A DNA stretch of 64,000 nt. Source: Tetradesmus obliquus (taxonomy: Eukaryota > Chlorophyta > Chlorophyceae > Sphaeropleales > Scenedesmaceae). Each line of letters opens with the position of its first letter. The stretch's first letter is position 1. The notes under the pieces are model-generated. The model was given only the letters and a program-made list of their open reading frames with translations, did not search any database and was not told where the DNA came from. This document shows positions 12,837 through 61,341 of the stretch, piece by piece. Made by a program: the position numbers and the translations under genes. The DNA lies in assembly GCA_030272155.1 (NCBI GenBank), contig CP126195.1, forward strand, positions 620,001 to 684,000, given 5' to 3'.

Positions 12837-15331
12837 ATGCACACGCAGCTGCAGCACTGTCGGCATGGCACAAGGACACAAAGCCATGTTGCCAGCATAC
12901 GACCGCAGCATGTAGCTCTAGACGGGCGGATCGTCCGGCCCAGGCTGCAGCAGCAGCTCAGCAGAGCAGCATCCACAGACACAGATGCAGCGCCCTCAGG
13001 AGATGCCTTCGCGGAGCTCGTCCGCATGGCAGTTGAAAAGGACCCCACACTAGCGCCCCTGGCGGAGCAGCACCTTAAGCAGCGCCAGCAGCAGCCTGCT
13101 GCTGCAGCAGCAGGCACAGCAACAAGCATGCTGGGCCCTTCATTAGCATCTTTGCCAAACTCAAGCAAGCCGCCTTGGCTGCGGCAGCGGGCTCCACAGG
13201 GAGAGAAGTATGGGCAGCTGTTTGAGCAGATGCGGGAGCTGAAGCTTGCTACTGTGTGTGAGGAGGCGCAGTGCCCTAACATTGGGGAATGCTGGAATGG
13301 AGATATGGGTGAGCCGCTGCAGCAGCAGCTGCTATAGCTTGCAGGAACATGGAGGTCAGGCAGATGTGCTCGTTGCAGCAGCATTAGCATGAGTAGCAGC
13401 AGCTTAGAGCTTGCAGGAACTGCAAGAGCGAGTAGATGTGCTTGCATGTTGCGGGCATCATGTAACAGCAGCATTCCATGCAGAGGCAGAGTTCAAAGGC
13501 AGCTTCCTTTGTTTGAGTTGTTTACTGGGTGCCGCATGCCGTCTGCAGCAGCCATGGGCTTAGGAGGGTACTCTTTTGTAGCTAAGCAGTAGCAGCACGG
13601 CGAGCTCCTTCACAGATTAGCAGCAGCACCAGCACCAGCACCAGCACCAGCACCAGCACCAGCACCAGCACCAGCACCAGCACAAGCACCAGCTGCAGCA
13701 GCAGCAGCAGCAGAAGGAGCAGCGGGTGGTCTGTTGGTGGAAGGTTGACCAACAAACATAACATGTTGGTGCCAATCCTGGCAGTCGCAGTCTCAACCCG
13801 GCTGTTGCGTGCAGCCATTGCTCTACAAGCCGAACCCTACCCTGTATGCAAGTAACTCTGCAACCCAGCTCTCAATCCTTGATGAAACCTGTCTGTCGAA
13901 TCAAGTTTGCACCAACAGCCACTGCCACCATCATGCTGCTGGGGGACACCTGCACGCGCAGCTGCCGCTTCTGTGCGGTCAATTTTGCACCTTGCCTAAA
14001 CCTTACAACGACCGTGCTGCCACATTGAACCTGCACATGCAGCCACCGCCACCATCATGCTGCTGGGCGACACCTGCACGCGCAGCTGCCACTTCTGCGC
14101 GGTCAACACTGCAGCTGTCCTAACATCAAAACACATCTGCCTGCTGCACTTCACCTGCCATTGCAGCCACCGCCACCATCATGCTGCTGGGTGACACCTG
14201 CACGCGCGGCTGCCGCTTCTGCGCGGTCAATACAGCGCGCACGCCGCCCCCAGCAGACCCCATGGAGCCGCGCAACACAGCAGAGGCAGTAGCAAGCTGG
14301 GGCGTGGGCTATGTGGTGCTGACAAGTGTTGATAGGGACGACATGCCAGATGGTGGCGCAGCACACTTTGCAGGTGGGCGAGTCGCTGGCTTGTTGGTGT
14401 CTATTAATTTTGTTCTTTATACTTTTGCGAGGTGCAACAGCTCATGCTGCAGAGGTGTTTACAGTGCTGTGGGGTTTGTTGATTTGACGTTGACCCATGG
14501 AGCCACGCAACACAGCAGAGGCAGTAGCCAGCTGGGGTGTGGGCTATGTGGTGCTGACGAGTGTGGACAGGGACGACATGCCAGATGGCGGTGCGGCACA
14601 CTTTGCAGGTGGGCTGGGGCTCTATGTTGTATGAATCTGGACTGCTCTGGAGTTGAAGCTAGCAACGGGTGCAACAGCTCCTTTTGCGTAGGTGTGTGCG
14701 ATTGGCTCTACACGCTCGTGCCATGCCAAATGACAACTGTTGCATTGTGTGCTTGACTGGTAATGGCTAGCCGCCACCACGGCCGTGTCAAAATCCGCTT
14801 TTTGCCAACTTCGCTGCTGCTGCTGGTGCTCCTCCTGCTGCCACGGCTGCTGCAGAAACCGTGCGTGAGCTGAAGCGCCGCAAGCCCTCCATCCTAGTGG
14901 AGTGCCTGACCCCATCATCTGCTCACCTGGCTGCCGCTGCTGCTGCCACTGCTGCTGCTGCCGCTGCCTGTGCATCAATACTTACAGAAACCGTGCGGGA
15001 GTTGAAGCGCCGCAAGCCCTCCATCCTGGTGGAGTGCCTGACCCCTGACTTCAGTGGCGACCTGGATGCAGTGCGGCTGCTGGCTAGCAGTGGGCTGGAC
15101 GTGTTTGCACACAACGTGGAGACAGTGGAGCGGCTGCAGAAGCGGGTGAGGTGCTGTTCAAACAGGTGTCAGGCACCCAGTGGGCCGGCGATTGTTGGGT
15201 GTGCATCAAGTGCTTGCCATCAGCCATTTGAAGGGCATGGTGCGTCGAGCGATTGTGTGCTGCGTGTTCATCTGCTGCTCGCGGTGCGTCACCCTCATCT
15301 GTATGCTTTGTTTTCCTAGCTAGCGTGCTGA

Positions 15332-15395
<64 letters not shown>

Positions 15396-16834
15396 ATTCA
15401 GGTGCGCGACCCGCGAGCCGGCTACATGCAGACGCTGTCTGTGCTGCGCGCCGCCAAGGAGGCCGGGGTGTACACCAAGAGCAGCATCATGCTGGGGCTT
15501 GGGGAGACAGAGGATGAGATCATCGACACCATGCTGGACCTCAAGGTGGGCGGCATGTTTGACCAAGTTTGACCACGCAGGTGTTATTGTGCATGTTAGA
15601 CCGAGTCGACTGCGCGTGTGTGAATTTGTGCGTGTCTCAAATGAACACCAAGAGCAGCATCATGCTGGGGCTGGGTGAGACAGAGGATGAGATAATTGAC
15701 ACCATGCTGGACCTCAAGGTGGGATATCGCTTGATGCTGCATGTTTGACCAAGTTTGACCAAGCATGTTTGAATGATTTGCCCGAGTTTATGTTCGGCCG
15801 TACATCTTTAACCTTTCGCATGCTGGCATGAACAGCAAGAGCAGCAGCATTGTGCTGGGGCTGGGTGAAACTGAGGATGAGATCATCGACACCATGCTGG
15901 ACCTCAAGGTGGGGCGCATGTTTGACCACAGTTGACCAGGTTTGACCAAGTTTGACCAAGCATGTTTGACCCTGCATGTTGGACCAAGTATTTTGGGGGC
16001 AGTACCTGCAGCCGACTGACACTCGCTGGCTTGCTGCTGCTGCAGCGGCGGCGGCTGCGGCGGCGGCTGCGTGTAAACGTCCATTGCTGTTCAATTCTGC
16101 GGCGTAAACATCTGCACGCTTAGTCAGTACCTGCAGCCTATTGACAAACCTGCCTGCTGCTGTTATCTTATTGTCTTGCTGCTGCAGGACTGTGGTGTGG
16201 ACATCTTTACGCTTGGGCAGTACCTGCAGCCCATTGAGACACACACTGGCCTGCTGCTGCTGCCGTTGCTGCTGCTGCTGCCTCATTTTCATGCTGCTGC
16301 AGGACTGCGGTGTTGACATCTTCACGCTTGGGCAGTACCTGCAGCCCACACCTAAGCACCTGCCTGTGGTGGAGATGGTGCCACCTGAGCAGTTTGAGTA
16401 CTGGCGGAGATATGGGGAGGAGGAAGTTGGCTTCAGGTGAGAGCGGTGGGCTGCTGTGCTTGTGCATGCTTGGTGGGGAAGAGGCTGCATTTATGTCAAA
16501 TGTCCCCTGAGGCGCTCTGAGTACTGGAGGAGGCCCTCCTCCATGATGGGCAGGAAGGAGTTGGAGTTTCAGGTGGAGAGAGGTTGACTGCTGTGCTTGT
16601 GCACGCTGCTCTGTTGGTGAGGCTGCATTTGGTGTGATACCATCTCAGCAGCCAAGCTCATTGCATAGAGGTGAACAGCTGCCCTGATGCTGCTACTGCT
16701 GCTGCTGCTGCTGCTGCAGGTATGTTGCGTCAGGGCCCATGGTGCGCTCCTCCTACAAGGCGGGAGAGTTCTTCCTGGAGGCAATGATCCACAGCGACAG
16801 GGACGCAGCGGCAGCAGCAGCAGCGCAGCGGTGA
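12837..16834 (+). CDS. LIP1P: Lipoyl synthase, plastid type, six exons
   Basis: This is a radical-SAM enzyme that inserts two sulfurs into octanoyl-ACP or octanoyl-E2 to make lipoyl groups for 2-oxoacid dehydrogenases and glycine cleavage. Exons: 12837-13308, 14167-14373, 14988-15145, 15402-15545, 16303-16436, 16720-16834; all have GT-AG junctions and phases that join without a break, giving 409 residues. A transit-like N-terminus precedes [12 protein letters not shown]. The auxiliary-cluster motif is [12 protein letters not shown], the radical-SAM motif is CTRGCRFC, and the C-terminal RSSY is present. [17 protein letters not shown] and CAVNT resemble plant plastid LIP1p more than the mitochondrial form. 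Between the exons lie about ten partial exon copies, annotated separately, which must be skipped. The N-terminal ATG is the first in a frame that stays open to the conserved domain. Confidence 0.95.
13622..13690. repeat. AGCACC hexanucleotide microsatellite in intron 1
   Basis: About eleven tandem CAGCAC/AGCACC units lie in lipoyl synthase intron 1, followed by a short CAG run. Upstream, around 13330-13450, a ~55-bp intronic segment (AGCTTGCAGGAAC...) is imperfectly duplicated. Confidence 0.85.
13918..14105 (+). repeat. Two 5'-part echoes of lipoyl synthase exon 2
   Basis: Two copies of the acceptor and first ~65 bases of exon 2 lie upstream of the real exon, starting at 13918 and 14042. Each begins after an AG acceptor and encodes [14 protein letters not shown]. 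The real exon has CTRGCRFC; the echoes read CTRSCRFC and CTRSCHFC, so the radical-SAM motif has drifted. Neither echo has the exon's 3' part or donor. Confidence 0.9.
14495..14612 (+). repeat. 3'-part echo of lipoyl synthase exon 2
   Basis: This is a near-identical copy of the last ~115 bases of exon 2 ([20 protein letters not shown] to DGGAAHFAG), including its GGTGGGC donor, downstream of the real exon. It lacks the CxxxCxxC part and has no acceptor of its own. Confidence 0.9.
14856..14916 (+). repeat. 5'-part echo of lipoyl synthase exon 3
   Basis: A copy of acceptor plus first ~55 bases ([20 protein letters not shown]) upstream of the real exon 3, which begins at 14988. It diverges after the Pro codon and has no donor. 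Confidence 0.9.
15642..15912 (+). repeat. Two 3'-part echoes of lipoyl synthase exon 4
   Basis: Two copies of the last ~75 bases of exon 4 ([18 protein letters not shown] then LDLK), each with its GTGGG donor, at about 15645-15720 and 15828-15906. The downstream intron pieces (GTTTGACCA, itself repeated) were duplicated with them. In the second copy SSIM became SSIV. Confidence 0.9.
16090..16240 (+). repeat. Two 5'-part echoes of lipoyl synthase exon 5
   Basis: Copies of the acceptor-side ~50 bases of exon 5 ([14 protein letters not shown]) at about 16090-16145 and 16189-16240, upstream of the real exon at 16303. The more distal copy is the more diverged ([14 protein letters not shown]) and has lost its clean acceptor. 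Confidence 0.85.
16503..16590 (+). repeat. Degenerate 3'-part echo of lipoyl synthase exon 5
   Basis: A diverged copy of the exon 5 tail and donor (GAGTACTGG ... GTTGGAGTTTCAGGTGGAG) downstream of the real exon 5. It carries internal insertions. Confidence 0.65.
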
Positions 16835-16895
16835 CACAGCCAGGACCTGTACAGGCATGTCTGCTGCTGTGGTGTGGCAAAAGCAGCAGCAGCAG

Positions 16896-16962
16896 CAAGG
16901 GAGTTCTGTCTGGAGGCAATGATCCACAGCGGCAGGGATGCGGCAGCAGTTCAGCGGTGACA
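16896..16962 (+). repeat. Terminal-exon echo of lipoyl synthase exon 6
   Basis: A copy of the C-terminal coding end (LEAMIHSGRDAAA) including the TGA and following ACAC, placed after the real stop at 16834. It shows that echoes are not confined to introns. Confidence 0.85.
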
Positions 16963-17199: not shown

Positions 17200-17680
17200 C
17201 CGCAGTTCTGGCCGTGATTTTGCACCGTCTCGCAGCAGGCGCGACGGATTGTTGCATTGAAGCCCGTACGCCAGCAAACAGCCAGTGTGCGCCCACCGTG
17301 ATAGCATCACAGCCTCAAGGTCTTTCATGATGCAAGGCACAACCGTGCGGCTGAGGGATCCACTTTCAGCACCCATGGGCAAATGAAGACTCTTCATGTG
17401 TGGCAGATATGATATCTGCCACACAGGCAGCAAAGGAAGCGCCACAGCCCCTGGCATTTGCAAACTTTGAGAGATGCGGCATCTCTCCTCAAACCAAAGC
17501 AATGCCGGGCACTACCGCCACGCCAGCTATGCTGTGCTGCGTCTGCTCCACCAGCGTGTCCCGCACGCCGCCAAAAGGCCAGTGTGCGCCTGCCATCACA
17601 GCCTCAACCTCTTTCACGGTGCGGGGCACAACCATGAGGCTAAGCAAGCCGCTTTCAGTATCACTGATTAAATGGGCATT
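17200..17680 (-). repeat. Two 3'-part echoes of prolidase exon 12
   Basis: The copy at about 17668-17489 encodes [20 protein letters not shown] and continues to its own stop after GIALV, closely parallel to the real end (GIAVA). A second copy near 17375-17290 is degenerate (ESGSLSRTVVPCIMKDLEAV). Both lie downstream of the real stop at 17752. Confidence 0.85.
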
Positions 17681-17751: not shown

Positions 17752-19559
17752 TTACGCTACAGCAATGCCGGGCACTGCCACAACGCCAGCTATGCTGTTC
17801 TGCGTCTCATCAACCGGCGTGTCCCGCACGCCGCCAAACGGCCAGTGTGCGCCCGCCATCACAGCTTCGATCTCCTTCACGGTGCGGGGCACATCTGTCA
17901 GGCTGAGCGAGCCGCTTTCAGTGACAACCACGTTGTCTTCGATGCGTACTCCGCCCATAGACATGAAAGGCTGGATGGCTTCCTTCACAAGGAACTTGCT
18001 GTGCACGGGGTCCTGCATAGGCAGCGAGCAGACATGCAGGTTGACGCATGCAAGGTGCTTTGGGCAGGGTGTACGGACATGCAGGTTAGCACGTGCAAAG
18101 TGCTTTGGAGCAGGGTGTACGGGCCCATGGCCATGAAGGGCTGGATGGCTTCTTTCACGAGGAACTTGCTGTGCACGGGGTCCTGCATATGCATGAGGAA
18201 CAACAAGGACAGCATGTTTAGGTCCTAATTAGGACGTGAAGATAAGGTTTGATGTCTGATGCGCCGACTTGGTTGTGCACCCCTAAAACCCCTGGCACTA
18301 GGGAGTCCGGTGCCTGTGGCGGACACCAGTCTATGAGAGCTGTATGGTCTGTCTGATGTTGCATACACACATGCCATGCAGTGCAGAACAGCCACAGCAG
18401 CAGCTGTCCTGCAAGCACTGCATGCGGTCACAAACATGCCCAGCCGCTGCTTGCCTCACCTCAAATGCTGGCAGCAGCAGCACTGGGTTGAAGTAGCAGC
18501 CTGGCTCCACAGTAATATGATCATGCCTTGGGGCACTGAGCATTGCAGGTTCAGCGAGTATATTAAGAAATCGCCACCCTCACCTCAAATGCTGGCAGCA
18601 GCAGCACTGGGTTGAAGTAGCAGCCTGGCTCCACAGTGATGATCATGCTAGCAACCGCGCTGAGCATCACAAGTACAACCAGTGATCAAACACACGCCAC
18701 CCTCACCTCAAATGCTGGCAGCAGCAGCACCGGGTTGAAGTAGCAGCCGGGCTCCACAGTGATGATCATGCCAGCCTCCAGCTGCCGCGCAGTGCGCAGG
18801 CTCTTGTAACCGGGCCGCTGCAGCAGCAGACAAGCAGCAGTTGTTTTGTTATGACAGTTACTGTCTGCAGTCACTGCAGCTGCCGTGCAGTGCGCAGGCT
18901 CTTGTAGCCGGGCCGCTGCAGCGGCAGACATGCAGCAATTGCGTTGTTACGGCAATATTGTTTGCAGTCACTGCAGCTGCCTCACAGTGCGCAGGCTTTT
19001 GTAGCCGGGCTGCTGCAGGCAGCAGACATGCAGCAGCAGTGTTGGTTGCGCTGCAAGTCACGCTACCCAGCAGCCAGGCATGCCTGGCACGTCTGCGCAG
19101 AAGACACCTTTTTTTGTTATCAGTGGGAGCAAAACCCTACTGGCTGGCCATACACAGCAAACAAGCGAACCCCTTTTCGGGTCGTGGCTAGCACATGCGA
19201 CACGCTCGCTGCACCGGCTGCACTCAGCAGACGCAGAGCATCATAAGGACCACAGCACACAACCAATCGCGGAAGAGGGGTTGCATAGCTGCCGGTGCAG
19301 TAGCTTAAATCAGTGGCATCGTGTCAAGAATGGCAAATGTTGCCAGCGCAGCAAGCCTACCTGGGTGCGCTCAGGGAAGCCGTCACCGTAGCCACCCACA
19401 TCGTGCGTGTCAATGCCGATCAGGTGGCCCAGGCCTGGCAGCAGTGGCAGCAGCAGCAGCGGCGGCGGCAGCAGCGGCAACAGCAGCAGGCAGCGGCATG
19501 CTGAGTGAGTGCGTGTTGATGCCGATGAGGTGGCCCAGGCCTGTCAGCAGCAGCAGCAG

Positions 19560-19597
<38 letters not shown>

Positions 19598-21663
19598 GCA
19601 GCAGCAGCAGGCAGCGACATGCTGAGTCAATGTGTGTCGATGCCGATGAGGTGGCCCATGCCTAGCAGCAGGAGCAGCAGCAGCAGGCAGCAGCAGCAGC
19701 AGCAGCAGACAGCACCAGGCTGAGTGAGTGTGTGTTGATGCCAATCAGGTGGCCCAGGCCTGGCAGCAACAGGCAAGACGAAGCAGCAGGCACAGCTGCT
19801 GTCACTTACACGCAAACTGTTGTCGGTATATGTATCATCCACGACAGCTGTGTCGCGACATATGCGCTACACTGCCAGCTGTGCCATGCTGCGCTCACCG
19901 TGTGGCATGAACAGACCTCCCACCTCCGCTGCGATCATCTCCTCAATGTCACCCTGCAGCAGGAGCAGCAGCAGCAGCAGCAGCAGCAGCGGCAGCAACA
20001 AAACATGTGCAACGCGTAACAGCGCGGATGTGTACAGGTTGAATTTCAGCACGCCCACAGCAGCCAACATTGCATGCTGTGGCACCGCACCAGAAGTACT
20101 TGTGTTCATACGACACGGAATGGGCGATGTTTTCAGTCAGCGTGGCTGCATCAGCCCCAGCACGATGTACTGCGCGAGGATGTCATGTGTGGTCTGTATA
20201 CTGCTCCAACATATGTGTGTTCTGCTACTAGTAGTATACTTGTGCTAAGTTGTGCTCTGCCAATTCACTACATAATTGAGGAACACCCTCAGCACCACCC
20301 CCAGCCCAGCACCCCACCTGCAGCAGACCGCCAGCTGCCAAGCCCCCAATGATCTTCCTGTAGGCCAGCGTGTGCAGATCAGGCCAGGACACTCCTGGTG
20401 CCATGGCAGCGATCACGCTGCGGTGCGCGTCCAGCACTGCGTTGTACAGCAGCGCCTGCTGCGGCGTGAACTTGCCGTTGACTGGCCAGCTGCAGGTGAT
20501 ATCTGCAGCATAATGAGTGCAGCAGAGGGGAGACACAGCAGTGGACGCAATTGAGTATTTGATTTCAGAGCCATGCGTGCGGCAGCTGTCATGATGTCTG
20601 CAGAAGTCCTGCTGCAGACGAGCGCTGTGAACTTGCCGTTGACTGGCCAGCTGCAGGTGATGTCTGCAGCAGCGCAAGTATAAGTACAGGAGAGGGCCAA
20701 CACAGCAGTGGAGGCTGCTGAGTAAGAGGACTCCAGAAACCATGCGAACGGCAGCCATCAACAATGCATGCACAAGTTCTGCTGCAGACAAGTGGGGTGC
20801 ACGTGCCATTGACTGGCCAGCTGCAGGTGATGTCTGCAGCGCAATGGTTGTAGCAGCGGGCAAAACACAGCAGTGGAGGCGGCTGAGTAAGAATACTCCA
20901 GCAGCCATGCGTGCAGCAGCCGTAAACAATGTCTGCACGTTGAGCTGCAGACGAGCGGGGTGAACTTGCCGTTCACTGGCCAGCTGCAGGTGATGTCTGC
21001 GGCAGTGCAGCAGGATGGACAAACGGCGGTTAAAAAACATTTGCTTTATATAATGAACATGTAGGCAAACAAATGCCAAACATGGTCAACCATCTACAAT
21101 GACATTTGAAGTATTGAGTCAGAAGTGAATGGAAAAAAACACCTGCTGTGGCTGAGTACACCATATCCAAAGATGTCCATGCAACGCACCTGACCCGTAT
21201 CTGTAGTACTCGCAGCCCATGTCGAACAGCACCAGGTCGCCATCCCGCATCTGCGCGTCGTTAGGCGCGCCGCCGTGGCCGTAGTGCAGCACGGCACCGT
21301 TGGAGCCGGAGGCAGCGATGCAGGTGTAGCCTGCGGCGGCAGCAGCAGCAGCAGATGCAGCAGCGTGGCTCTATACTGCTGTGAGCCTGCCGGTGCAGCA
21401 CAGCGCTGTTGGAGCCGGAGGCAGCATGCAGGTGTAACTTGCGGCAGCAGCAGGATAAAATCACATGAATTTGAGGGTCCGCTGGTGCAGCACTCTGGTG
21501 CTGCAGCAAATGCAGAGGCATCAGCTTTGATAGGTAAGCTGCCAGTGGTGTGACGGCCAGAAGCTTGCGAAAGAAGTTCTGCGCTGCCGTCTTGCAGTTG
21601 CCACACCAGCGCTGCTGTATCCCCTGTGCTGCATTGTTGCTTCCACTGCCTGCTCTACTCTTG

Positions 21664-21701
<38 letters not shown>

Positions 21702-23963
21702 ACTCCAGCTGCTCTGCTTCATGCTTCTCACCTTGGTTCCTGCAGCCTCCCTTGCTGTATGTGAAGTGCCTGAAGATGCTCTCAGCCTGGTACTCCATCA
21801 TGCCTGGCTTGCAGCCCTGCAGGCAGCCAGCCCAGACATGCAGCATCTCTGCTCAAATTTCACTGTTACAGCATCAGCATGTAGGTCAACAAAGGGGGCA
21901 TGTGAACGAAGCAGCACATACACCACAGGACAGAAGCAGGCTGGTAGGCCAAACAGACAACACACATCCAACTGCCAGCAGGTGGTGGCTGTGTGCCCTC
22001 GCACCTGCATCATGGCCACGTGCGCGCGTGAGCCCAGGTGGTTGACGTACTTCATGAGCACGATCTCGCCAGGAGTCTTGTGCACACGCGCCTCATTGAT
22101 TTCACGGAACAGGGTTGCTGTCTCAAGGGTGAGTTTGTCGCTGCCCTCAAACGATGGCGGCTGCACCTCTGTGCCGCTGCGGCAGCATGCAGAGTGCAGT
22201 ACACAGCAGCAGCGCACAAGGCAGCAGAATGAGGAGCACTGCTGAGCAAAGCAGTGCTGTGTTGTGGCAGGTGCGGAGGTGAAAGATGTCAAACGCGTCC
22301 GCTCGCAGAAGCGCAGCTGGTGTCTGTGTACCCTGGTGAGCATTTACATGCAAGCACTGCACCAGCAGCATTATAGGTTGCCCTGTAAGCTGACTCACGG
22401 ATCAATGGCACTGCAACAACATGCCACCTTTGTTCTGCCAATTGGTAATTCAGCCTACAGCCCACCTATCTGTGTTTGTGCCAGACAGTAGGTGGATGCA
22501 AGGTGCCCCAGCAGCCGCCAGCACGCCAGCCATGTCATCCACATACACCACCTCATCCACTGCGTACTTGGCCTTGTAGTAATCCGGCCCCTGGATTACG
22601 CCCATCCACACGCCATAGCTGGCAGGCAGGCGTGGCATGAACAGCATGCTGCGGCCCTGCAAATTAAAGCAGGAATATGCAGCAGCAGAGGTGTAAGGCA
22701 GTGATGCAGTTGCAGCAGGCAAGCACGAAAGGCAGAGCTACTGCAACAAGAGCAACAGTGAAACAGCTGCTTTCCTGGATTCCGCAGCTCGCACATGTGC
22801 TGTACAGCTTCCACCAGATGTGACCACTACAGTATGCAGCACATGCCCAGCTTTGATGTGGCTGCTGGCGCTGCCCTTCAACAGCCGCGGACTTGCGCTG
22901 TGCATCCCGTACAGTTCAAGGTACATGCAACTATTATAGCACTGTGTTGCTACGGGCCTGCCTTGCCTCACATTTCTAACATCCAGGGCTCCCCAGAAGC
23001 TGTCATCATTCACGCCAAACAGGTGGTGAGCCATACAGCTGCAGCAATTGCTACCAGCAGCAGCACTTTTGCTGGGCTTGCTTGCTCACATTTCTAACAT
23101 CCAGCGCTCCCCAAAAGCCGTCCTCGTTCACGCCAAACAGGTAGTGCAGATAGGACTCCTGCCTGAACAGCTGCTCGCCGTCAGTGGTGTACACCGGCTG
23201 CACATCACCGCCCTGCATCCGTATATGTTTGAGATGTGTGTTACTTTATTTGGTATGTACAGCAGCAATGAGCACAGGCGGTGGGCGCCTGTGGAGTGTC
23301 AGGTATGCGCTGCACAGCAGATGCTGACAGAGTCAGCATGAAGCATGTGCTGCTGTATCATACGTGATGAAGCTCAGCTACGTGGCACGCGTGGTACACT
23401 GCGTTACTGCATTGCTGTTGTTTGTTTCGCTGCGGTCTCTTCCTGCTGCTGCTGCTGTTGCTACCACGGCAGTTGCTTCCCATTTCTGCTGCGCTGCTGC
23501 TGGCAGTGACTTTGCCCTCTGCCACATACTATAGCTGTACATGAATAACATGGCAAAGTATCAAAACAAGCCATTCAATTCACCTTGAGCAGAATGATGC
23601 CCCGTTTGTCCACAGGTAAGGCTGCCTGCATGCGCTGCAGCACCCCCTGCTGTATCGGCCCATGGAAGGCCCGCCTGTCTATCCTGCAAGGCACAGCCGT
23701 ACTGCTCAGTAAAACGCCCACTGCATTGCTACATGCTGTGTTATTTCCATCAATGTGTGTGACCCTGCCGCTTACTTCAATGTGCCCGGGCCCATGTAAA
23801 AGCAGCACCGGTCCTCTGCCATGCTGCTGTGCTTTGTTGATGCTGCTGTGGAAGCTGATCTAACGAGGTGAAAGGCTGGATGGCGTTTACACGAAGTAAG
23901 GAAACCGTTTGAACGTAGCGCGGAACGAATGAGCATGCGGTGCTGGCACACAGTCGATCGCAT
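17752..23963 (-). CDS. PEPD: Xaa-Pro dipeptidase (prolidase), twelve exons
   Basis: A metallopeptidase of the pita-bread (M24) fold that releases the C-terminal Pro of Xaa-Pro dipeptides. Exons: 23963-23776, 23683-23584, 23212-23090, 22656-22466, 22176-22005, 21816-21732, 21330-21190, 20502-20318, 19953-19899, 19434-19361, 18817-18707, 18012-17752. All have GT-AG junctions and compatible phases, giving 561 residues against ~493 in animals. The extra length is mostly an Arg/Ser-rich N-terminus, possibly an organelle transit peptide; ATG 23936 is an alternative start. Metal ligands are all present: Asp in LFDMGCEYY and GSDITCSW, His in FMPHGLGHLIG, Glu in ITVEPGCYF and in VRIEDNVVV. The substrate-domain motif [12 protein letters not shown] is also present. 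About 15 partial exon copies lie in the introns or 3' flank. The gene converges on lipoyl synthase. Confidence 0.95.
18124..18188 (-). repeat. 5'-part echo of prolidase exon 12
   Basis: A copy of the acceptor and first ~55 bases of exon 12 ([20 protein letters not shown]) upstream of the real exon, which starts at 18012. It diverges after the Gly codon. Confidence 0.9.
18455..18650 (-). repeat. Two 3'-part echoes of prolidase exon 11
   Basis: Copies at about 18650-18587 and 18529-18459 of the exon 11 tail ([20 protein letters not shown]), each with the GAGGTGAGG donor. The outer copy has small insertions. Exon 11 thus has echoes on both sides, each of the predicted half. Confidence 0.9.
18877..19015 (-). 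repeat. Two 5'-part echoes of prolidase exon 11
   Basis: Copies starting at 18915 and 19012 of the acceptor and first ~35 bases ([13 protein letters not shown]), upstream of the real exon start at 18817. Both diverge after the Gln-Leu codons into the same CAGTGACTGC intron sequence. Confidence 0.9.
19500..19760 (-). repeat. Three 5'-part echoes of prolidase exon 10
   Basis: Copies starting at 19540, 19661 and 19759 of the acceptor-side ~33 bases ([12 protein letters not shown]), spaced 98-121 bp with CAG-rich intron sequence between them. The catalytic-His region is repeated, but only the real exon (from 19434) continues into DVGGYGDG and has a donor. Confidence 0.9.
20610..20999 (-). repeat. 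Three 5'-part echoes of prolidase exon 8
   Basis: A regular array of copies starting near 20667, 20836 and 20997 (period 161-169 bp) of the acceptor and first ~40 bases of exon 8 ([12 protein letters not shown]). The full exon at 20502 is the last unit. The repeat unit also contains the flanking intron, which is conserved among the copies. Confidence 0.92.
21380..21440 (-). repeat. 5'-part echo of prolidase exon 7
   Basis: A copy of the exon 7 head (YTC ... [10 protein letters not shown] in a frame disturbed by a base loss) upstream of the real exon at 21330. It diverges after the LH codons and has no donor. Confidence 0.85.
22966..23030 (-). repeat. 3'-part echo of prolidase exon 3
   Basis: A copy of the exon 3 tail ([17 protein letters not shown]) with its GTGAGG donor, downstream of the real exon that ends at 23090. 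The real exon reads [17 protein letters not shown]. Confidence 0.9.
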
Positions 23964-25369: not shown

Positions 25370-25429
25370 CTGTGAAGTAGCTGCAAATGTCAGCCTCCTC
25401 ATCCAGCAGTGATCCATCTGCTGACAACT
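25370..25429 (-). repeat. 3'-part echo of LRR3 exon 2
   Basis: A copy of the last ~60 bases of the LRR3 exon that ends at 25549 (LSADGSLLDEE-A-DICSYFT in translation), with its GGTGGG donor, downstream of the real exon. It differs at a few bases. Confidence 0.9.
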
Positions 25430-26195
25430 GGAGCCCTCAGAGCAGGAGGCACTGTGCAAGCACAGCATAGAGGTTACATCATTGAACTTGTGTGCTTTGT
25501 CCTTATATTCTGTACATGAATGCAGCCAAGAGCATTGCAAGAGCCCACCTGTGAAGTAGCTGCAAATGTCAGTCTCCTCATCCAGCAGTGAGCCATCTGC
25601 TGACAGATCCAGCTCCACAAGGCTGGTAGCAGCGCCAACAGCCGCCAGCAGCTGCTGCCCCTCCTCCATGCTCAGCTCTGCCCGGCAGTCTCTTATCTCC
25701 AAGCTGTGCAGGCAGCTCAGCTGCCGCCAGGCTGGCGCTGCGCTGCGGGCCTTTGCTGCTGAGGTGTACATCAGGGAGAGCTGCTGCAGCTTGGTGAGGC
25801 ACGTCAGCTGCTGCAGCTGCTCTGCTTGAAACAGCGCATCTGCATGAACACAGCAGGAACCAATGAGCCTCGTCAGCAGCATGCCTCTCCTGCTTGCATG
25901 TATCCTTACGCAATGCATACGTCAACAGCCGAAAGCACAGGCCAACACGCAGGTGCGCTCGTTTCCGGTGGTTGCTGTGACTGTGTCATCCAGAGCACCC
26001 AGCAGCAGTGCATGCCGCAAACTTAGATGCACCGGCAGCCCTGCTGCACACACCGTGCATGCAGCATGCAGTGCAGCAACTTTCACGAGCTGGCATTCAG
26101 ACGCTTGAAGCAAACATGGGCACACAACTTCACACAACTTCACAAGCTCCTCATTAGCATTACGGTTCTGCTGCCTGCAACACATCCTCGCCATT

Positions 26196-31171: not shown

Positions 31172-31215
<44 letters not shown>

Positions 31216-33923: not shown

Positions 33924-33986
33924 GCACAGTAATTACTATTATTAATTATAATCATTATAATAATTACTATTATTAGTTATAACCTT
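33924..33986. repeat. AT-rich insertion with repeats
   Basis: About 60 bases of almost pure A/T contain two direct AATTACTATTATTA units around an imperfect palindrome. The same position upstream of gene C (near 55550) lacks it, so it is an insertion. Its second copy lies at about 44718-44780. Confidence 0.7.
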
Positions 33987-41962: not shown

Positions 41963-42009
<47 letters not shown>

Positions 42010-51354: not shown

Positions 51355-51356
51355 CT
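50839..51356. repeat. ~129-bp minisatellite, copy in spacer II
   Basis: The same array as 40043-40560, next to the stop codon of gene C. A few bases differ (for example near 51168). Confidence 0.75.
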
Positions 51357-53976
51357 AACCAGCCGTTGCACCAGACACAGCGATTGCATTGGAGCTGCCA
51401 GAGCCGCTGCTGCTGGAGCTGCTGTAGGCACTGGATGTAGCAGTAGAGCCAGCCCCTGCAGTCATGCCAGGCATCCCATTTGGCCCCACAAAGCCAGGCA
51501 TCATCATGCCATTGAAGCCAGTCATACCATTGAACCCATTTGCCAGTGCATTGGATCCTGCAGCACCGCCAGAGGCCTGTGCACTTGAAGCAGCCATAGC
51601 GCTGGCTGCATTCGGGCCCATTCTTGGTGCTGCACCAGCACCAGCAGGAACCATATACCCAGATGCCGGCTGTGGGTTTGCCAGTGCAGATCCAGATCCG
51701 ATTGCAGCAGCGGGCTGCGATGGCTGTGATGCAATGCCAGGCCATGATGCAGTGCCGATTCCCGGGCCGGTGATGGTCTTTGTGCCGCTTGCTGTGCCAC
51801 TGTTCTGGGCAATGATGCCAGGGCCAGCAGTGATGCCGCAGGCCAGCACCTGCTTGGATGCCGTGGAGGTGCTCACGGCAAAGGCGTGGCCGTTGACGCA
51901 CATGGCACGTGCAGCAGCGAATGCTTTCTGCGGTAACAGCAGCAGCGGCAGCAGCAGCAGCGGCGAAGCAGCGTAAATGGCGCTGCAAGTGGGTGCGCGC
52001 ACGAGTGCACGGGATCAGCTGCCGATTCTGCTACGATCGTGTAACTCGGAGCTGTGAATCGTGCAGTGTAGCAGTGCCACCAAAGACATCATGGCCACAC
52101 GAGACAATGCTGCAGCAGCTACTGCCAGCGCTGCCCACCTCCAGTATCAAGCAGCCGTTTGTATCCACGCGCAGCACCTCGGAGTAGGCAGCAGCCCAGG
52201 CCTCAGCATACGCATTGCTGCCGGAGCAGTACACGGCTGCAGTCGCAGCCACCAGACCGTCCCTGCTAGCCTGCCCGCCAGCAGCAGCAGCTGCAAACGC
52301 CTCTCCATACAGCTTCACCCGGCTTGGGCTGATCACTATGTCAGCATCACGAGGAGGCAACCAGCCGTGAGTGGAGGCTGCTGTGCCAAATGCAATGTCC
52401 CTTGCAATCCCCAGAGAAAAGGGCTGCAGCGACTGCACGCTGGCTGCTGAGCCGAATCCAAAGCTGATGACAATGGTGAAGGTGCGACTGTAGCTGCCCC
52501 CGTAGTCCATAGCCGCGTGTGAGAGCTCTGAGACTAGCTGCGGGGGCATGATCAACAGCACAGCAGGCGCAATTGATTGGTTCTGGCTACCGTCGTAGCC
52601 GCTGTTAGTCCTTTGGACGCTGCAGCATGTCCACTGCAGCTGTCAGACGTGGTGCAGGGCTATGCAAAACATCAGCCATGCGGTTGGCTGCAGAGCACAG
52701 CTCTCATCCGCATCCGCAGCTGCTGAGACTAAGACTGAGTAAAGCGCTGCGGGTCTCCCAGTCATGCAGATTTGGCTGCAATTGGCGGATCACTCTCCTC
52801 TCAGACTACCCCTTGTGCCTTTTAATCTAGAGGAATAAAGCAGCACCTCGCATGGCAGCAGTGCCGGCAGCAGCAGAGGCAGCGACAGCAGCAGCAGCGC
52901 CTAGGCCTGCATAACATGCACTGGCAGCACAGCTAGCACACACTGCTTCATATACCTTGACCCACCCGTACACTCAAGTATGTGAATGGCTGTGGAGCTC
53001 ACCTTTGCAAACTTAGCTGAGTCCTTGCTTGCAACTTTTGCAAGCACATCCGCTGCCTTTTGGGGAGATGCCTCACCAGCCTTCAGCAGGCTGTTCACTG
53101 CTGTGCTGACATCGTCCTCGTCGCCGTCCATGGCACGCAGGAGTTTCTGGAGTTTGCCGCAGATGAACAGCATGCAACGTGTGACTTGCCAAAGTGGTAT
53201 TGTCACACACTATGTGCACACTTTATGTGCATGTGCTGGCATGACTGTTGCGCTCTGCAATGGCCTGAAGCCAAACAAGTTTGCTGGCACCAGGGCCAGC
53301 TGCTGACTTCAGCCGCTGCTGCCGCTTGTTAGCAGCACAAGCCTGAGGGACGGAAGGTTCCACCAGATTGTCTAGGCCAAAACAACATGGCACAGCACTG
53401 CTACAAGGTGATGTGCATGCTGCATTCGGCCCACCTGCACAGCTGCATCGGGGCTGTTCAAAATATCATCCACCAGGGTGCCACTGTACGAAAAAGTGTC
53501 ACGCAAAGCAGTGCCAGGGCGCGAAGCCACTAGGGTAGGTGCAGGTGCTTCCCTGGGATTTGGTCCAGGGCAGCCGGGGGTCCACGTTATTTTGCAATAG
53601 TCGACCACGTGCGTGTTGCGGGTATAGATGGGCGCGGGTGGTGGGTTGTAAACCTTCGGGATATATATCGGCGTTGGTGTTGGTTTGTACGTGCTCGGCG
53701 GGTTGTAGCCGCCCCTGCTGGGTGGCAGCCACCCGCGGTAACCACCAGAGGCGCTGGAGGGTTGGGGTGTTGCTGCCGTAACCATTGGTTGGATGGTGAC
53801 ATAGGATCCTGGCGTGCGGGTGGCAGTTGGAGGCTGCTGTGTGGAGGTTGACTCGAATATGGCACCAAGGTCATTCTGGCCGGAGCTCTGCAGCAGGCTC
53901 CGCAGGCGTGCAGCCTCCGCGCTGTATACTGCCAGCACCAGCAGCAACAGCAGCAGCAGCGGCGGCAAGGTCACAC
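51355..53976 (-). CDS. Secreted Ala-rich algal protein, gene C
   Basis: Exons: 53976-53435 (acceptor-defined start), 53146-53003, 52537-52139, 51927-51355; the internal introns are phase 0 as in A and B. Exon 1 has a hydrophobic signal core ([13 protein letters not shown]), a Pro/Tyr/Gly linker (GYNPPSTYKP, PKVYNPPPAPIY) and FSYSGTLVDDILNSPDAAVQ. The 48-residue exon reads LLRAMDGDEDDVSTAV to AKFAK. Exon 3 has SYSRTFTIVISFGFG. Exon 4 is identical to that of gene B. The open frame continues upstream through a (GGCA)15 tract, but a good AG acceptor at 53977 suggests a separate first exon; the start is unresolved. Exons 1 and 2 are clearly diverged from A and B, so C is the older paralogue. Confidence 0.65.
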
Positions 53977-56133: not shown

Positions 56134-57051
56134 CTACACCGTCCCTCCAGCTGCTGCTGCTGCAGCCGCCGCTGCTAATCCAACTGCATCTGCGCCACCA
56201 CCAGCAGCTGCTGCTGCTCCGAGCCCCAGCTTTGTCAGGTGCTGCTGCACCACGCGCTCCACTGTATCCACAATCGCCTGCGTCTGCGCCTCGATTTCAA
56301 CATTCACGGTATCCCCCTGCCCCTTGACCCCAAACACAGTCACGCGCATCGTCTCAGGGATGAGGTACACTGAGAAGCAGGCGTCATCCCAGACCTCGCC
56401 TACTGTGAGGCTGCAGCCGTCCACTGCGATGAAGCCCTTGGGCAGCATGTACTTGGAAAACTTGGGGTCCGACAGCCGGAAGCTGAGCCGCCTGCAAACG
56501 CATGCATTTGAAAGAGAAAGTTGGAAGAAGGTGCAGTTGAACCTGTGAAATATGACAGCCGGCGGGAAGCTGGGTCGCCTGCAGCACAGCACAGACAGCA
56601 CGGATGAGGTAGACTGAGAAGCAGGCGTCGTCCCAGACCTCGCCTACTGTGAGGCTGCAGCCATCCACTGCTATGAAGCCCTTGGGCAGCACGTACTTGG
56701 CAAACTTGGGGTCCGACAGCCGGAAGCTGAGCCGCCTGCAAGGCACAGCACAGACAGCAGGTAACACAATTTTGCTGTGTTCTCCACCTGGATTATGCTG
56801 GCCGTGTAGTGCAACTGCAATCTCCCTGCCTGCTGCTGCTGCTGCTGCTGCTGGCACCGCCACTGCAGCTAGCGCCTGTCACTGCTGCTGCCACCGCCAC
56901 TGCTGCTGGCACACCTGCTGTTGCTGGCACCATCACTCCTGCTGCCCCCGGCACCGCCCCACCTGTTGTTTGCTTTGTCCTCCCTCCACTTGGATGATGC
57001 TGGCTGTGCGGTGCACATGCCCACCTCCCCTGCATATAATGCTGCCTGCTG

Positions 57052-57082
<31 letters not shown>

Positions 57083-58120
57083 CAAGCCCCACCTGTTGTT
57101 TGCCGTGTCCTCCACTTGAATAATGCTGGCTGTGCAGTGTGTGCAACACAGTGCACATGCTAACTCGCCTGCCTAATGCTGCCTGCTGCTACTGCTGCTG
57201 CTGCTGCTGCTGCTCCCAATACTCGCCTGTTGTTTGCAGTGTCCTCAACCTGGATGATGCTGGCTGTGCAGTGCACATGCCCTGACACGTTGTGCCCGCC
57301 TATCTCGTCACCCACGCGTGCTGAGCGCTCAAAGTTCACCTTGCTGCCCAGCTGCAAGTAAACAGCAGCACATGCAGCACACACCAGCAGTGTTAGCTTA
57401 GGAAAAACCACCGACAGCAGTGCAGCGGCATAGTGGCAGTTATGCGACATCTATGTGCAGACATAGCTGGCACTGCTGCCGTATCCTGCCTTGACAAGGC
57501 AGGGTGCAGGGTGGCTAACCTTCACGAGTGACAGGGAACACTCAGGTGTGCCTTACTCCACAGCTGGCAGCTTGACGCGAATGTGGACATACTGCCGTAC
57601 AGATACCGACAGTTTCATCCGACTGAGCTGGCGTGCCAAATGCCTGCAGCTAGCGTCCAGCACACGGTGCTGCTGCCGCTGCTGCTGTCGCCACTGCAGT
57701 TGCTGCTGCTGCTGCTGCTATTGCATGGGCAACAGACCCCTGCATGTGTGCAACCACCTTCACTTCACAACACTATCCTACCTGCAGGTTGCCTAAGCTT
57801 GTGGCTCGAAGCGTCTCAGCCATGACATCAAAGGACAGCACATCCCCATCAATGGCTGTCACTGTCAGGCATGTGCCATTGATGGCCACACTAGCCCCTA
57901 TTTGAATGTTCTCAGTCCTTCCAGCGGGAAACTGGATCCGGAATGATCTGAAATTCTCCTTGGTGTCTAGCTGGGCCACCTCTGCTGTTCCCTGCACGAT
58001 GCCTGTGAACATGTTGCGCACTACGAGCGTCCTGCGGCCTGATAAAGGCGCAGAACGATGTCTAACTACACGTACAGCGTTTTGCCTGGAGCAGCAGCAG
58101 CTGCGTACGGCGCTTTGCAT
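56134..58120 (-). CDS. ribE: Riboflavin synthase (alpha type), three exons
   Basis: It dismutates two 6,7-dimethyl-8-ribityllumazine into riboflavin and the pyrimidinedione, the last step of riboflavin biosynthesis. Exons: 58120-57782, 57351-57227, 56491-56134, giving 273 residues. An Arg/Ser/Val-rich N-terminal ~36 residues (likely plastid transit peptide) precede MFTGIVQGTAEV, the classic start of the first lumazine-binding domain. GTCLTVTAI and FDVMAETLRATSL follow. The second domain shows GSKVNFERS, GGHNVSGHVHCTASI, NNRRLSFRL, KGFIAVDGCSLTV and DTVNVEIE. Exon 2 ends at a GC donor (CAG then GCGAGT), whereas two of its three downstream echoes have GT. The final ~35 residues are an Ala/Gly-rich extension. 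A bidirectional promoter with the 58962 gene is possible. Confidence 0.96.
56606..56735 (-). repeat. 5'-part echo of riboflavin synthase exon 3
   Basis: A ~130-base copy of the acceptor and head of exon 3 (RLSFRLSDPKFAKYVLPKGF to FSVYLI), upstream of the real exon that starts at 56491. It differs at few bases (FAKYV against FSKYM) and diverges just after CTCATCC. Confidence 0.93.
56765..57148 (-). repeat. Three 3'-part echoes of riboflavin synthase exon 2
   Basis: Copies ending at about 57093, 56963 and 56770 of the exon 2 tail (HCTASIIQVEDTANN), separated by CTG-rich intron sequence. The first two have a GGTGGGG donor; the third is degenerate and has lost it. All lie downstream of the real exon, which ends at 57227. 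Confidence 0.9.
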
Positions 58121-58961: not shown

Positions 58962-60919
58962 ATGAAGCTTAAGCTGTTTGGCCAGCAGCACCATCAGCAA
59001 GTACTCCAGGCAGCAGGAGCAGCTGAGGGCAATCACTTGCAGGATGCGTATGATGAAGAGGCCTATCCTGAACCACAGCTGCTGGGTTCTCCTGAGCTGT
59101 CCCAACCAGGCTCTGTCAGGACACCAGCAGACTTATCCCAAGAGCCATCAGCAGTAGCAGAAGCAGCAGCAGCAGGCGGCCTGCTTGTTGAGGCCAGCGC
59201 AGGCAGCCAGCAGCTGCTGCCAAACCTGCTACTGTCAGAAGAGGACCTGCTTCAAGATGCACTGTACAGCAGCGCTAGCGTGTCAGGCAGCCGTCAAAAC
59301 TTTGACCCTGGCTCATATGACACCTCGCTTGCAGCTGAGCACAGCAGCGGCAGCTTCAGAGCCGCCCACGTATCCAGCAGCAGACTCGCCACAAGCCAGA
59401 GCAGCAGCATCATTGGTGTTGCTGACGGCGCCAGTGCTGGCAGCAGCAGTGCGATTGGCAAGGCGCTGTTTGCAGATGCCTGCCTGCCATCCACCCCCAA
59501 GTCCTGCAGCCACAGCAACTTGCGGGTGATGGCGTCACGCAACAGCTGCGAGTGGCAGCAGGGTCCTGGCGGCAACAGCGGCAGCAGCTATGGTGGCGGC
59601 AGCTTGCAGGGCAGCCGCGGCTACAGCAACAGCAGCAGCTGGACAGCAGATGGGGATGAGATACAAGACGGCCTTGAGGAAGCATATGTACGCAGCAGCA
59701 AGCCTGTAGCAGGCAGCACAAGCAGCCGCAACAGTAACAGCAGCAGCGGCAGCAGAAGCAATGCAGCCACCAGCATAACAGGCGTGGCTGCTGCCGCAGC
59801 AGACGGCGCGCCTGATGATGATGAGGATTTCTTGCTAGCTGCCATGGACGTGTGCCTTGGCAGCTTGCACACAGCAGTGCAGCTGGCACGCAACTCATCA
59901 ATTGGCGGTGAGCGGCCTAGCAGCGCTGGATCTTCAGCAGCTGGCAGGACTGCTGCATCAGCTAGTGGTGGTGTGCGCTGGTCGCTCAGCAGCAGCGGCA
60001 GAAAGTCTTCAGCAGCTGCAGATGCAGCAGCAGAGGATGGCCTGACAGGCCCAGGCGCTGCTGCTCTGAGCACTAGGCAGATGCAGCGCAACAAAAGCAG
60101 GCTGAGCAGCGGCCAGTTGGAGGGGGCAGCTGCCAGCCATATTCATGCAAGCTGCAAGCAGCCGCCGCTGCAGCTGCTGCCGTGTGATGACAGCCCTGGG
60201 CTGCTGAGGGTTGGCAGTAGGGGCAGGCCTGAGGCATGGTCAGACTGTGGGAGTCCAAGCGGCAGCAGAGGGCGGCCACCGGCATGGTCAGACGGTGGGG
60301 CCGCAAGCAGTAGCTGCACTCAACTGGGTACGCAGCAGCTGCATGCTCAAGCAGAGCAGCAAGGCTGGTGTGAGGGGCCAGCCGCTGCACCCCAGCAGCA
60401 GCAGCAGGGCGCTGCTGGTGAGGGCCACATCAAGCACAGCAGTGCTGCGGGAGCAGCAGCAGCAGCAGCAGCGGCAGCTGGCCAGCTAGGCATGCCTAGA
60501 TCACGGTTGAGTGAAGGTGACCTGCCAAAGCTGCAGCGGCAGCAGCAGCAGCAGCAGCAGGCAACTGCGAGGTCCCTTTCCCCACTGCAGCAGACTGGCA
60601 GCAGGCCGCAGTCACGCAAGCAGCAGCAGCAGCAGGGCCGGCAGAAGCAGCAGCGCATGCAGTCGGCCTACGGCACTGCTGCAGACAGCGGCAGCAAGGC
60701 CAAGCGGCACGATGGCTTGCTGGGGTGGTTTATGCGGCCGGATAAGCACAACACAACAGCTCCGAGTGCTGCTGGTGCTGCTGAGGTGGTTGAAGCTGTC
60801 GGCAGGAGGGAGGTCAGCAGTGCACACAGTAGCAGGGAGGCTGCCAAACCTACATGGAGCAGCAACGCCACAGAAGATGCTGCTGCAGGTGCTGCAGGAC
60901 CTTGGGCTGCACGTGACAT

Positions 60920-60950
<31 letters not shown>

Positions 60951-61234
60951 TCGCTATTTGGTGGGGCCGCAATGCAGCCGGCAGCAGTGCCAACACACGC
61001 CAGAGGCAGCAGCCGAGGAGGTGGCAGCAGGGATGCTGCCAAGCTGCATCACCCTGTCAGCTGCGGCAGCAGCAGCAGCAGCTGCAGCAGTGATGACGAC
61101 AGCAGTGGCAGCTCTGCTGGGGAGGCAGCAGCTGCGCCCCGGGCACCATTTGCACCGCAACCTCCCAGCAGCAGCAGGCCAGCTGCAGCTGGGCCTGCGC
61201 CTAGGAGGATGCAGGTGGCAGGGCAGGCCTTGAT
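58962..61234 (+). CDS. Ser/Gln/Ala-rich low-complexity protein, first large exon
   Basis: Open from ATG 58962 (MKLKLFGQQHHQQ). There is no signal peptide or membrane segment. Composition is Ser/Ala/Gly/Gln-rich with polyGln and polySer runs. More complex islands are LLSEEDLLQDALYSSASVSG, DDDEDFLLAAMDVCLGSLHTA and LLGWFMRPDKHN. A duplicated RGRPEAWSDCGS / RGRPPAWSDGGA motif is also present. The frame reads TGA at 61236, but that TGA overlaps a perfect GTGAGT donor, and the preceding 20 bases plus donor recur at 61315-61341. By the echo pattern of this window that marks a genuine exon end, so the protein probably continues in exons I could not identify. The family was not recognised; a regulatory or scaffold protein is one possibility. 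Confidence 0.6.
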
Positions 61235-61313
61235 GTGAGTACCTTCACAGCACACCATAGTGGCGGTATCATTCGGTGTGGTGTGCTCTTGCTGCACAGT
61301 TCAAGATTTGTGC

Positions 61314-61341
61314 TGGTGGCAGGGCAGGCCTTGATGTGAGT
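61314..61341 (+). repeat. 3'-part echo of the 58962 exon
   Basis: GGTGGCAGGGCAGGCCTTGA plus TGTGAGT repeats the end and donor of the exon at 61214-61240, about 101 bases downstream. Confidence 0.85.

What the first reader, a model, noticed from the sequence alone, without database searches (positions are those of the whole stretch)
12837..61341. Polarised partial exon copies (junction echoes) in unrelated genes
In lipoyl synthase, prolidase, riboflavin synthase, an LRR gene and the 58962 gene I count about 30 partial exon copies. Without exception, a copy of an exon's 5' part with its acceptor lies upstream of the intact exon, and a copy of its 3' part with its donor or stop lies downstream. 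No internal-only or opposite-side copies were found. This polarity is expected if short tandem duplications are frequent genome-wide and only those spanning a splice junction survive, because the echo falls into the intron and lacks the second splice site needed for exon definition. Echoes range from near-identical to decayed, so the process appears ongoing. It would be a source of new introns, cryptic exons and intron growth, and a natural test of exon definition. I know of no described system with this density, but that is from memory.
Basis: partly seen in the sequence, partly recalled or inferred. Interest (0 to 1): 0.85.

Follow-up and report, generated by a model that had tools for sequence, protein, structure and literature searches.

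The report
Tandem exon-end copies beside exons
In this green-alga-like genome about a fifth of the exons examined have head-to-tail partial copies of their own end lying next to them; the strict left-right order follows from tandem copying, but the concentration at exon ends and the mostly silent differences between copy and exon are surprising and not yet explained.

Summary
In 294 kb (window plus 230 kb from three other chromosomes) a gene finder trained here gave 286 usable exons. All 51 copies of exon 5' ends lie upstream and 59 of 60 copies of 3' ends downstream; the one exception and nine whole-exon hits come from echoes mis-called as exons. 56 of 286 exons carry an echo.

The polarity is geometry: a head-to-tail duplication crossing an exon edge must give this order. 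Two findings are not. (1) 65 of 72 local direct-repeat families overlap an exon end (15 expected; 64 against 26 under a stricter control). For recent whole-unit repeats the bias is strong with one control and borderline with the other. (2) Exon-echo mismatches fall 108/90/342 on codon positions 1/2/3, and echo splice sites persist beside scrambled introns. A dead copy of the same allele allows at most half at position 3; independent pairs show 65-66%.

Best reading: duplications of about 120 bp seeded in exons, often joining diverged alleles, then decaying. Simple random duplication, functional echoes and assembly fusion of haplotypes remain rivals.

The parts
12837..16834 (+). lipoyl synthase gene; exons 12837-13308, 14167-14373, 14988-15145, 15402-15545, 16303-16436, 16720-16834
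   Evidence: spliced translation 409 aa without stop; Pfam LIAS_N and Radical_SAM; the gene finder splits it and misplaces some ends
13919..13983 (+). 5' echo of exon 14167-14373 (first)
14043..14112 (+). 5' echo of exon 14167-14373 (second)
14494..14608 (+). 3' echo with donor of exon 14167-14373; 9 differences, all at codon position 3
14856..14913 (+). 5' echo of exon 14988-15145
15642..15718 (+). 3' echo of exon 15402-15545 (first)
15829..15908 (+). 3' echo of exon 15402-15545 (second)
16097..16138 (+). 5' echo of exon 16303-16436, acceptor AG lost
16188..16233 (+). 5' echo of exon 16303-16436
16546..16630 (+). weak 3' echo of exon 16303-16436
   Evidence: 78% over 87 columns
16901..16949 (+). 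copy of the 3' part of the last lipoyl synthase exon, downstream of it
17752..23212 (-). prolidase-like gene (Peptidase_M24, AMP_N); predicted exons include 23090-23212, 22005-22176, 21732-21816, 21190-21330, 20318-20502, 19899-19953, 19361-19434, 18707-18817, 17752-18012; upstream limit uncertain
17263..17659 (-). two copies of the 3' part of exon 17752-18012
18123..18182 (-). 5' echo of exon 17752-18012
18460..18652 (-). two 3' echoes (18584-18652, 18460-18527) of exon 18707-18817
18874..19010 (-). two 5' echoes (18874-18915, 18971-19010) of exon 18707-18817
19509..19759 (-). three 5' echoes (19509-19540, 19631-19661, 19728-19759) of exon 19361-19434
20627..20994 (-). three 5' echoes (20627-20661, 20794-20831, 20955-20994) of exon 20318-20502
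21393..21436 (-). 5' echo of exon 21190-21330, acceptor AG lost
22972..23028 (-). 3' echo of exon 23090-23212 (prolidase-like gene)
25370..25426 (-). 3' echo of exon 25549-25839 (LRR-like by eye, not run against Pfam)
56134..58012 (-). riboflavin synthase gene (two Lum_binding stretches)
56599..56735 (-). 5' echo (137 nt, 94.9%) of exon 56134-56491; a further short, decayed copy appears to follow it (by eye)
56936..57282 (-). array in the riboflavin synthase gene, exon limits uncertain; 5' echo at 57226-57282
61311..61339 (+). 3' echo, stop included, of the single-exon gene 58962-61238

Best explanation
The echoes are head-to-tail duplications with a unit of mostly 100-160 bp that cross an edge of a coding exon. 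SHOWN: tandem order, same strand, strong concentration at coding-exon ends (stop ends included), rarity of copies wholly inside exons, later decay of some echoes, silent-biased differences between exon and echo. INFERRED: the duplications are seeded inside exons and only those running out of the exon survive. INFERRED with less certainty: many join two already diverged alleles or haplotypes, because exons are the only well-matched tracts between them. A backward template switch or unequal exchange then sets an exon end of one allele beside the whole exon of the other. This would explain why copy and exon differ mostly at silent positions, why both have good splice sites, and why the intron parts are unlike. 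Afterwards the echo drifts, exchanges sequence with its neighbours, and arrays grow within one haplotype. The polarity follows from tandem geometry and needs no selection.
For: Polarity 51:0 and 59:1, the 1 a mis-call. 126 same-strand local repeat pairs against 3 inverted. 65 of 72 families at exon ends against 15.3 expected for single units; 64 against 26.4 when whole array lengths are placed at random and 9 exons that overlap an echo are removed, p 2e-17. Whole-unit repeats of at least 85% identity: 9 exon-end, 0 non-coding, 1 exon-internal against 2.0, 5.6, 2.4, p 6e-6. Intron part of the unit significantly alike in 49 of 98 testable pairs, so the units are tandem (12 of 110 left out for length). 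Codon-position mismatches 108/90/342, N/S ratio 0.17; position 3 over 1+2 is 3.46 where composition predicts 0.93. Third-position share in independent pairs 0.65 (n=69) and 0.66 (n=43), bootstrap limits 0.59-0.72 and 0.58-0.75, above the 0.5 ceiling that I derive for a dead copy of the same allele. Third-position G+C nearly equal in exon and echo, S>W 145 against W>S 115. Acceptor -3..-1 mismatch 0.04-0.08 against 0.48-0.64 at -20..-7. Third-position divergence tightly distributed around 0.16, positions 1+2 overdispersed. Later decay: 18 frame-breaking gaps, 4 stops, echo-private third-position changes S>W 45, W>S 9. Exchange mosaic in the C1 19250 array.
Against: With the stricter control the excess of recent whole-unit repeats at exon ends is only borderline at 85% identity (8 exon-end, 1 non-coding, 1 exon-internal against 4.9, 3.6, 1.5; p 0.053) and p 0.007 at 80% (15, 4, 1 against 8.2, 8.7, 3.1). 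No second haplotype was seen; a neutral divergence near 15% would be needed (my estimate from the rates), higher than usual within a species. The 10.8-kb tandem duplication in the window has 12 mismatches in 10.8 kb apart from its two ends and no diverged patch inside. Three-copy arrays are star-like, so two haplotypes would not do. Even arrays with near-identical introns show the third-position excess: exon-echo 0/2/15 where the intron differs by 1.6% (7 of the 15 from one array). Echo-echo pairs of middle age show no codon bias and the same rate as the intron (16/4/13 in 7 pairs), which plain decay also predicts. The excess is smaller on C2 and C13 (ratios 2.39, 2.82) than in the window and C1 (4.17, 3.69). 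The tight 0.16 is partly shaped by the BLAST cut-off.
Confidence: 0.36

Rival explanations
1. One reading: tandem duplications strike everywhere at random, those inside exons are purged, those crossing a junction are harmless, and echoes simply decay.
For: Tandem order and polarity; rarity of exon-internal ones; decay from near-identical to barely recognisable; echo-echo pairs of middle age decay like introns; echo-private changes lean to S>W at position 3. Exons kept by selection make exon-end units recognisable for longer than intron-only ones, and the bias among recent whole-unit repeats is only borderline with the stricter control.
Against: Intron-only and intergenic families scarce under both controls (6 against 42 or 35). 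Third-position share of exon-echo mismatches 65-66% against a ceiling of 50%. Exonic part about 9% diverged while the intronic part of the same pairs is near or beyond recognition.
Confidence: 0.25
2. Echoes are kept by selection: they act in splicing, or in rare isoforms, so their codons and splice sites are conserved.
For: Codon-phased mismatches, intact splice sites beside scrambled introns, nearly equal third-position G+C.
Against: Echoes do not lie in longer open frames: median 17 codons open upstream of 3' echoes against 19 in control frames, 28 against 32 downstream of 5' echoes. No consistent splice site at the truncated edges in the dozen or so of the 40 displayed cases that I looked at (two C1 67683 echoes do have AG there, and C1 22373 has AGGT a few bases inside). 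18 frame-breaking gaps, 4 stops, AG lost in 6 of 50. Stop-end echoes have no obvious splicing role, yet one is silent-only (C1 22373, 0/0/7).
Confidence: 0.13
3. Assembly artefact: segments of two or more diverged haplotypes were laid in tandem in one consensus; matching resumes only inside exons, which gives exon-end copies with this polarity.
For: Would explain coding constraint, good splice sites and unlike introns in both copies at once. False duplications from heterozygous regions, exons included, are described in PMC9516828 (passages read). A Scenedesmus genome is reported as likely diploid with separate haplotype contigs (PMC7955037, passages read; kinship to this genome not shown).
Against: 17 contigs, no N in 294 kb. 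Regular arrays, such as five units at 118 bp. Echoes with frameshifts, stops and lost splice sites, which a working allele should not have.
Confidence: 0.15

Closest known systems
[quoted passage not shown] ATP2A1; potato RdRp case; PMC4974935, passages read)
   Same: A short tandem duplication; in the potato case it takes in an upstream intron-exon stretch and became a new intron whose 3' splice site is inherited from the parent. A 5' echo looks like the state just before that.
   Different: Here the copies appear to stay inside introns, at about a fifth of the exons examined, on both exon sides and at stop codons, in arrays of up to five units, with silent-biased divergence.
Internal gene duplication in eukaryotes (Gao and Lynch 2009, known here only as cited in PMC4974935)
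   Same: Duplications inside genes are common.
   Different: Density, concentration at exon ends, and the codon-phased divergence measured here.
Minisatellite-like tandem arrays
   Same: Head-to-tail units, exchange between units.
   Different: The arrays start or end inside a coding exon and share its end.
False haplotype duplications in assemblies (PMC9516828, passages read)
   Same: Two alleles side by side; exon copies.
   Different: Reported cases come with assembly gaps and half read depth; here no gaps, regular arrays and decayed copies. Reads were not available.
Small tandem duplications from break repair (PMC8355091, search listing with start of abstract only; staggered-nick and patch models recalled)
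   Same: A possible source of tandem units of this size.
   Different: No preference for coding exon ends is known to me for them (recalled).

Membership tests
Intron gain by tandem duplication | duplicated exonic AGGT segment supplies both new splice sites | tested here: inconclusive
   echoes carry the parent acceptor or donor (44 of 50, 50 of 53); no consistent new sites at the cut edges in the dozen or so cases looked at by eye; no systematic AGGT count was made
Intron gain by tandem duplication | a new intron is spliced | not testable with these tools
   no RNA data
Plain neutral tandem duplication followed by decay | copies head to tail, same strand, intron part of unit homologous | tested here: met
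   intron part significant in 49 of 98
Plain neutral tandem duplication followed by decay | placement in proportion to tolerated target | tested here: not met
   65 exon-end, 6 intron-only, 1 exon-internal of 72, also with the stricter control; for recent units alone inconclusive (p 6e-6, 0.053)
Plain neutral tandem duplication followed by decay | at most half of exon-echo mismatches at codon position 3 | tested here: not met
   0.65 (n=69), 0.66 (n=43)
Inter-allelic unequal exchange | copy and exon diverged as working alleles before joining | tested here: inconclusive
   signature fits but near-identical arrays also show the excess
Inter-allelic unequal exchange | diverged haplotypes exist in the species | not testable with these tools
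   one assembly, no relatives held
Introner elements | one sequence family dispersed in many genes, often with its own ends | not tested
   echoes were searched only within 2.5 kb of their exon
Assembly haplotype fusion | half read depth, gaps, discordant reads | not testable with these tools
   no reads; no N in 294 kb

The most novel reading that the evidence does not exclude
Recombination in this lineage is seeded almost only in exons because introns of different haplotypes no longer match, and slips by about 120 bp so often that a fifth of the exons carry a stamped copy of another allele's exon end: a genome-wide fossil record of past alleles kept inside introns.
Probability: 0.23. Interest if true: 0.85.

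Novelty: new variant of a known kind. Interest (0 to 1): 0.58.

Why it matters
If exon-end duplication is this frequent and exon-targeted, it is a steady source of intron growth, decoy splice sites and raw material for new introns and exons, and the echoes record earlier states of the exon. It also warns that gene finders will call echoes as exons: nine of my own 286 usable exons overlap an echo of another exon. The codon-phased divergence is a sharp, checkable anomaly: hidden haplotype diversity, selection on intronic copies, or an assembly fault.

Tried and rejected
Whole-exon duplication later trimmed: would leave 3' parts upstream and 5' parts downstream as well; none left. Gene conversion from exon to echo as the sole cause: by my reasoning it cannot push the third-position share above one half; observed 0.65. 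Base composition: predicts a ratio of 0.93. Alternative first exons with a start codon at the echo edge: in-frame ATG upstream in 14 of 59 3' echoes against 20.5 in control frames; ATGs within the first ten echo codons (24 of 59) are largely those of the exon, a few are new. Two-haplotype origin alone: three-copy arrays are star-like. A stricter global alignment of intron parts found only 32 of 109 clearly alike; the local alignment replaced it. A phase test without gene models gave a weak signal (largest-phase sum 955 against 900; 10.6% of 94 pairs at p<0.05). My first gene-finder run was over-permissive and was replaced. A first repeat list used a complexity filter that dropped long repeats; redone. 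Naming the species through a peptidase with a solved structure failed and was dropped. Literature: of ten searches, five bear on the phenomenon; their listings show no report of dense polarised exon-end copies in algae. The other five were about the species, false duplications and repair. The library is partial, and I read passages of three papers only.
Full report
What was examined. The window is C5:620001-684000 of a 104.66-Mb, 17-contig assembly. GC is 0.52-0.59. The genes and the CAG/CTG richness suggest a green alga, but the species was not established.

Gene models. I wrote a simple hidden Markov gene finder, seeded it with the hand-spliced lipoyl synthase gene and long open frames, and self-trained it on the 294 kb. 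It converged on donors CAG|GTGRG and acceptors ending yTGCAG|G. Lipoyl synthase and seven of seven other predicted proteins tested match Pfam families (Clp protease, COX15, lumazine-binding, Peptidase_M24 with AMP_N, homoserine dehydrogenase with ACT, nucleoporin, sugar transporter). Predicted genes are sometimes fused or split and some ends are wrong, so only exon-level statements are made. Of 357 predicted exons, 286 passed length and coding-score limits; nine of these overlap an echo of another exon and are probably not exons.

The echoes are real and polarised. Searching each usable exon against 2.5 kb on both sides gave 170 hits: 51 copies of 5' ends, all upstream; 59 copies of 3' ends downstream and 1 upstream; 9 whole-exon hits; 17 labelled internal, 7 overlapping the edge, 15 within the exon, 11 inverted. 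The one opposite case and the 9 whole-exon hits come from echoes called as exons. The remaining 50 were left out of the polarity count and not each followed up. 69 exon ends on 56 of 286 exons have at least one echo: W 13 of 43, C1 26 of 89, C2 13 of 134, C13 4 of 20. They cluster by gene (overdispersion 2.96 over 27 gene segments). The nearest copy lies 100-160 bp away in 46 of 69 cases, median 124.

The polarity is geometry. A tandem duplication of a segment running from an intron into an exon leaves the truncated copy upstream of the complete exon; a segment running from an exon into the following intron or untranslated region leaves it downstream. No selection is needed. Selection shows only in the shortage of duplications inside exons: 1 of 72 repeat families against 14.9 expected, or 2 against 10.9.

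The placement is not fully explained by survival. Of 72 local direct-repeat families, 65 overlap a coding-exon end, 6 are intron-only, none intergenic, against 15.3, 29.7 and 12.1 expected when single units are placed at random. A stricter control, which places whole array lengths and drops the nine doubtful exons, gives 64 exon-end and 6 non-coding against 26.4 and 34.7 (p 2e-17). Part of this could be detection, since exons are conserved and introns are not. I therefore took only repeats alike over at least 80% of the unit. At 85% identity or more, 9 are at exon ends, 1 inside an exon, 0 non-coding, against 2.0, 2.4 and 5.6 (p 6e-6). With the stricter control it is 8, 1 and 1 against 4.9, 1.5 and 3.6 (p 0.053), and p 0.007 at 80% identity. 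Targeting of recent events is therefore likely but not secure. Stop-codon ends show echoes about as often as donors (5 of 33 against 31 of 253, after moving the mis-called exon 15402), while the 5' ends of predicted first exons have few (1 of 28 against 32 of 258 acceptors). The process is tied to coding exons more than to splice sites.

The divergence is odd. Between echo and exon, mismatches are 108, 90 and 342 at codon positions 1, 2 and 3 of about 2,085 sites each. If the echo were a dead copy of the same allele, it would change equally at all positions and the exon mainly at position 3, so at most about half the differences could be at position 3. In independent pairs the share is 0.65 (69 nearest echoes) and 0.66 (43 single echoes), with bootstrap limits above 0.57. 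In pairs of 91-97% identity the ratio of position 3 to positions 1+2 is 6.6-6.9, falling to 2.0 in the most diverged; the 11 pairs above 97% have too few differences to tell (2/1/5). By stretch the ratio is 4.17, 3.69, 2.39 and 2.82 for W, C1, C2 and C13. Composition predicts 0.93. Echo acceptors and donors are mostly intact, while the intron next to them is scrambled. The intron part of the unit is significantly alike in 49 of 98 testable pairs, so the units are tandem. But where the intron is strongly diverged the exonic part is still only about 9% different (84 pairs). Thus the echo lineage appears to have spent much of its time since separation under coding constraint; with the exon's own rates I estimate about 0.7 of that time (my arithmetic).

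Results that pull the other way. In arrays with several echoes, changes private to one echo are 69 at position 3 and 76 at positions 1+2 together, and lean 45 to 9 from G/C to A/T at position 3, as decay would. Echo-echo pairs of middle age differ as much in the exonic as in the intronic part and without codon bias (16/4/13 in 7 pairs of 5 arrays). Exon-private changes are 8/2/27 in 26 triplets. The youngest arrays, with introns 98% alike, still show 0/2/15 between exon and echo, 7 of these from one array. In that array (C1 22373) the 3' untranslated part is nearly identical apart from gaps, while the coding part has seven silent differences. The C1 19250 array is a mosaic of two exon-end variants over one intron type. 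So exchange between units, or between alleles, has probably occurred after duplication.

Explanations. The reading that covers most of this is a duplication process seeded in exons, often between diverged alleles, followed by decay and local exchange. It needs haplotype divergence that I cannot see here, and the very recent 10.8-kb duplication in the window shows none. Function of the echoes is possible, but they lie in no longer open frames, have no consistent splice site at the cut edge in the cases I looked at, and tolerate frameshifts and stops. Fusion of haplotypes in the assembly would give the same signature at birth and the same polarity; regular arrays, absence of gaps and decayed copies speak against it, but reads are needed.

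Known ground. Tandem duplication across an intron-exon border is a described route to new introns, with a worked case in potato (PMC4974935, passages read). False exon duplications from heterozygous regions are described in assemblies (PMC9516828, passages read). In the listings of five searches aimed at the phenomenon I saw no report of this density and placement.

Noticed in passing
30527-41735 and 41313-52528: A 10.8-kb tandem duplication, 99.3% identical; 12 mismatches in about 10.8 kb apart from 7 at its left and 44 at its right end, which lie in paralogous genes about 86% alike. A further gene copy lies at 29679-30944.
   Followed up: partly
40041-40588 and 50837-51384: A 130-bp tandem array next to the end of a predicted exon, one of the few arrays not overlapping an exon; present in both copies of the 10.8-kb duplication and so counted twice among the six intron-only families.
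   Followed up: no
27046-27139: A 94-base palindrome, 94% self-complementary.
   Followed up: no
35510-35558 and 38185-38233: Inverted repeat, 49 bases, 92%.
   Followed up: no
C1 stretch 44643-45211 (locus L013, 4643-5211): A 120-bp tandem array inside a predicted exon, in frame, adding repeated peptide units: perhaps a tolerated exon-internal case.
   Followed up: partly
whole sample: Donor consensus is CAG|GTGRG with G at +3 in about 87% of trained sites, and acceptors end in TGCAG.
   Followed up: no
13916-14230, 18779-19035, 20461-21000: Tandem Repeats Finder reports exon-end arrays as period-124, 98 and 165 repeats; a routine repeat mask could hide exon ends here.
   Followed up: no
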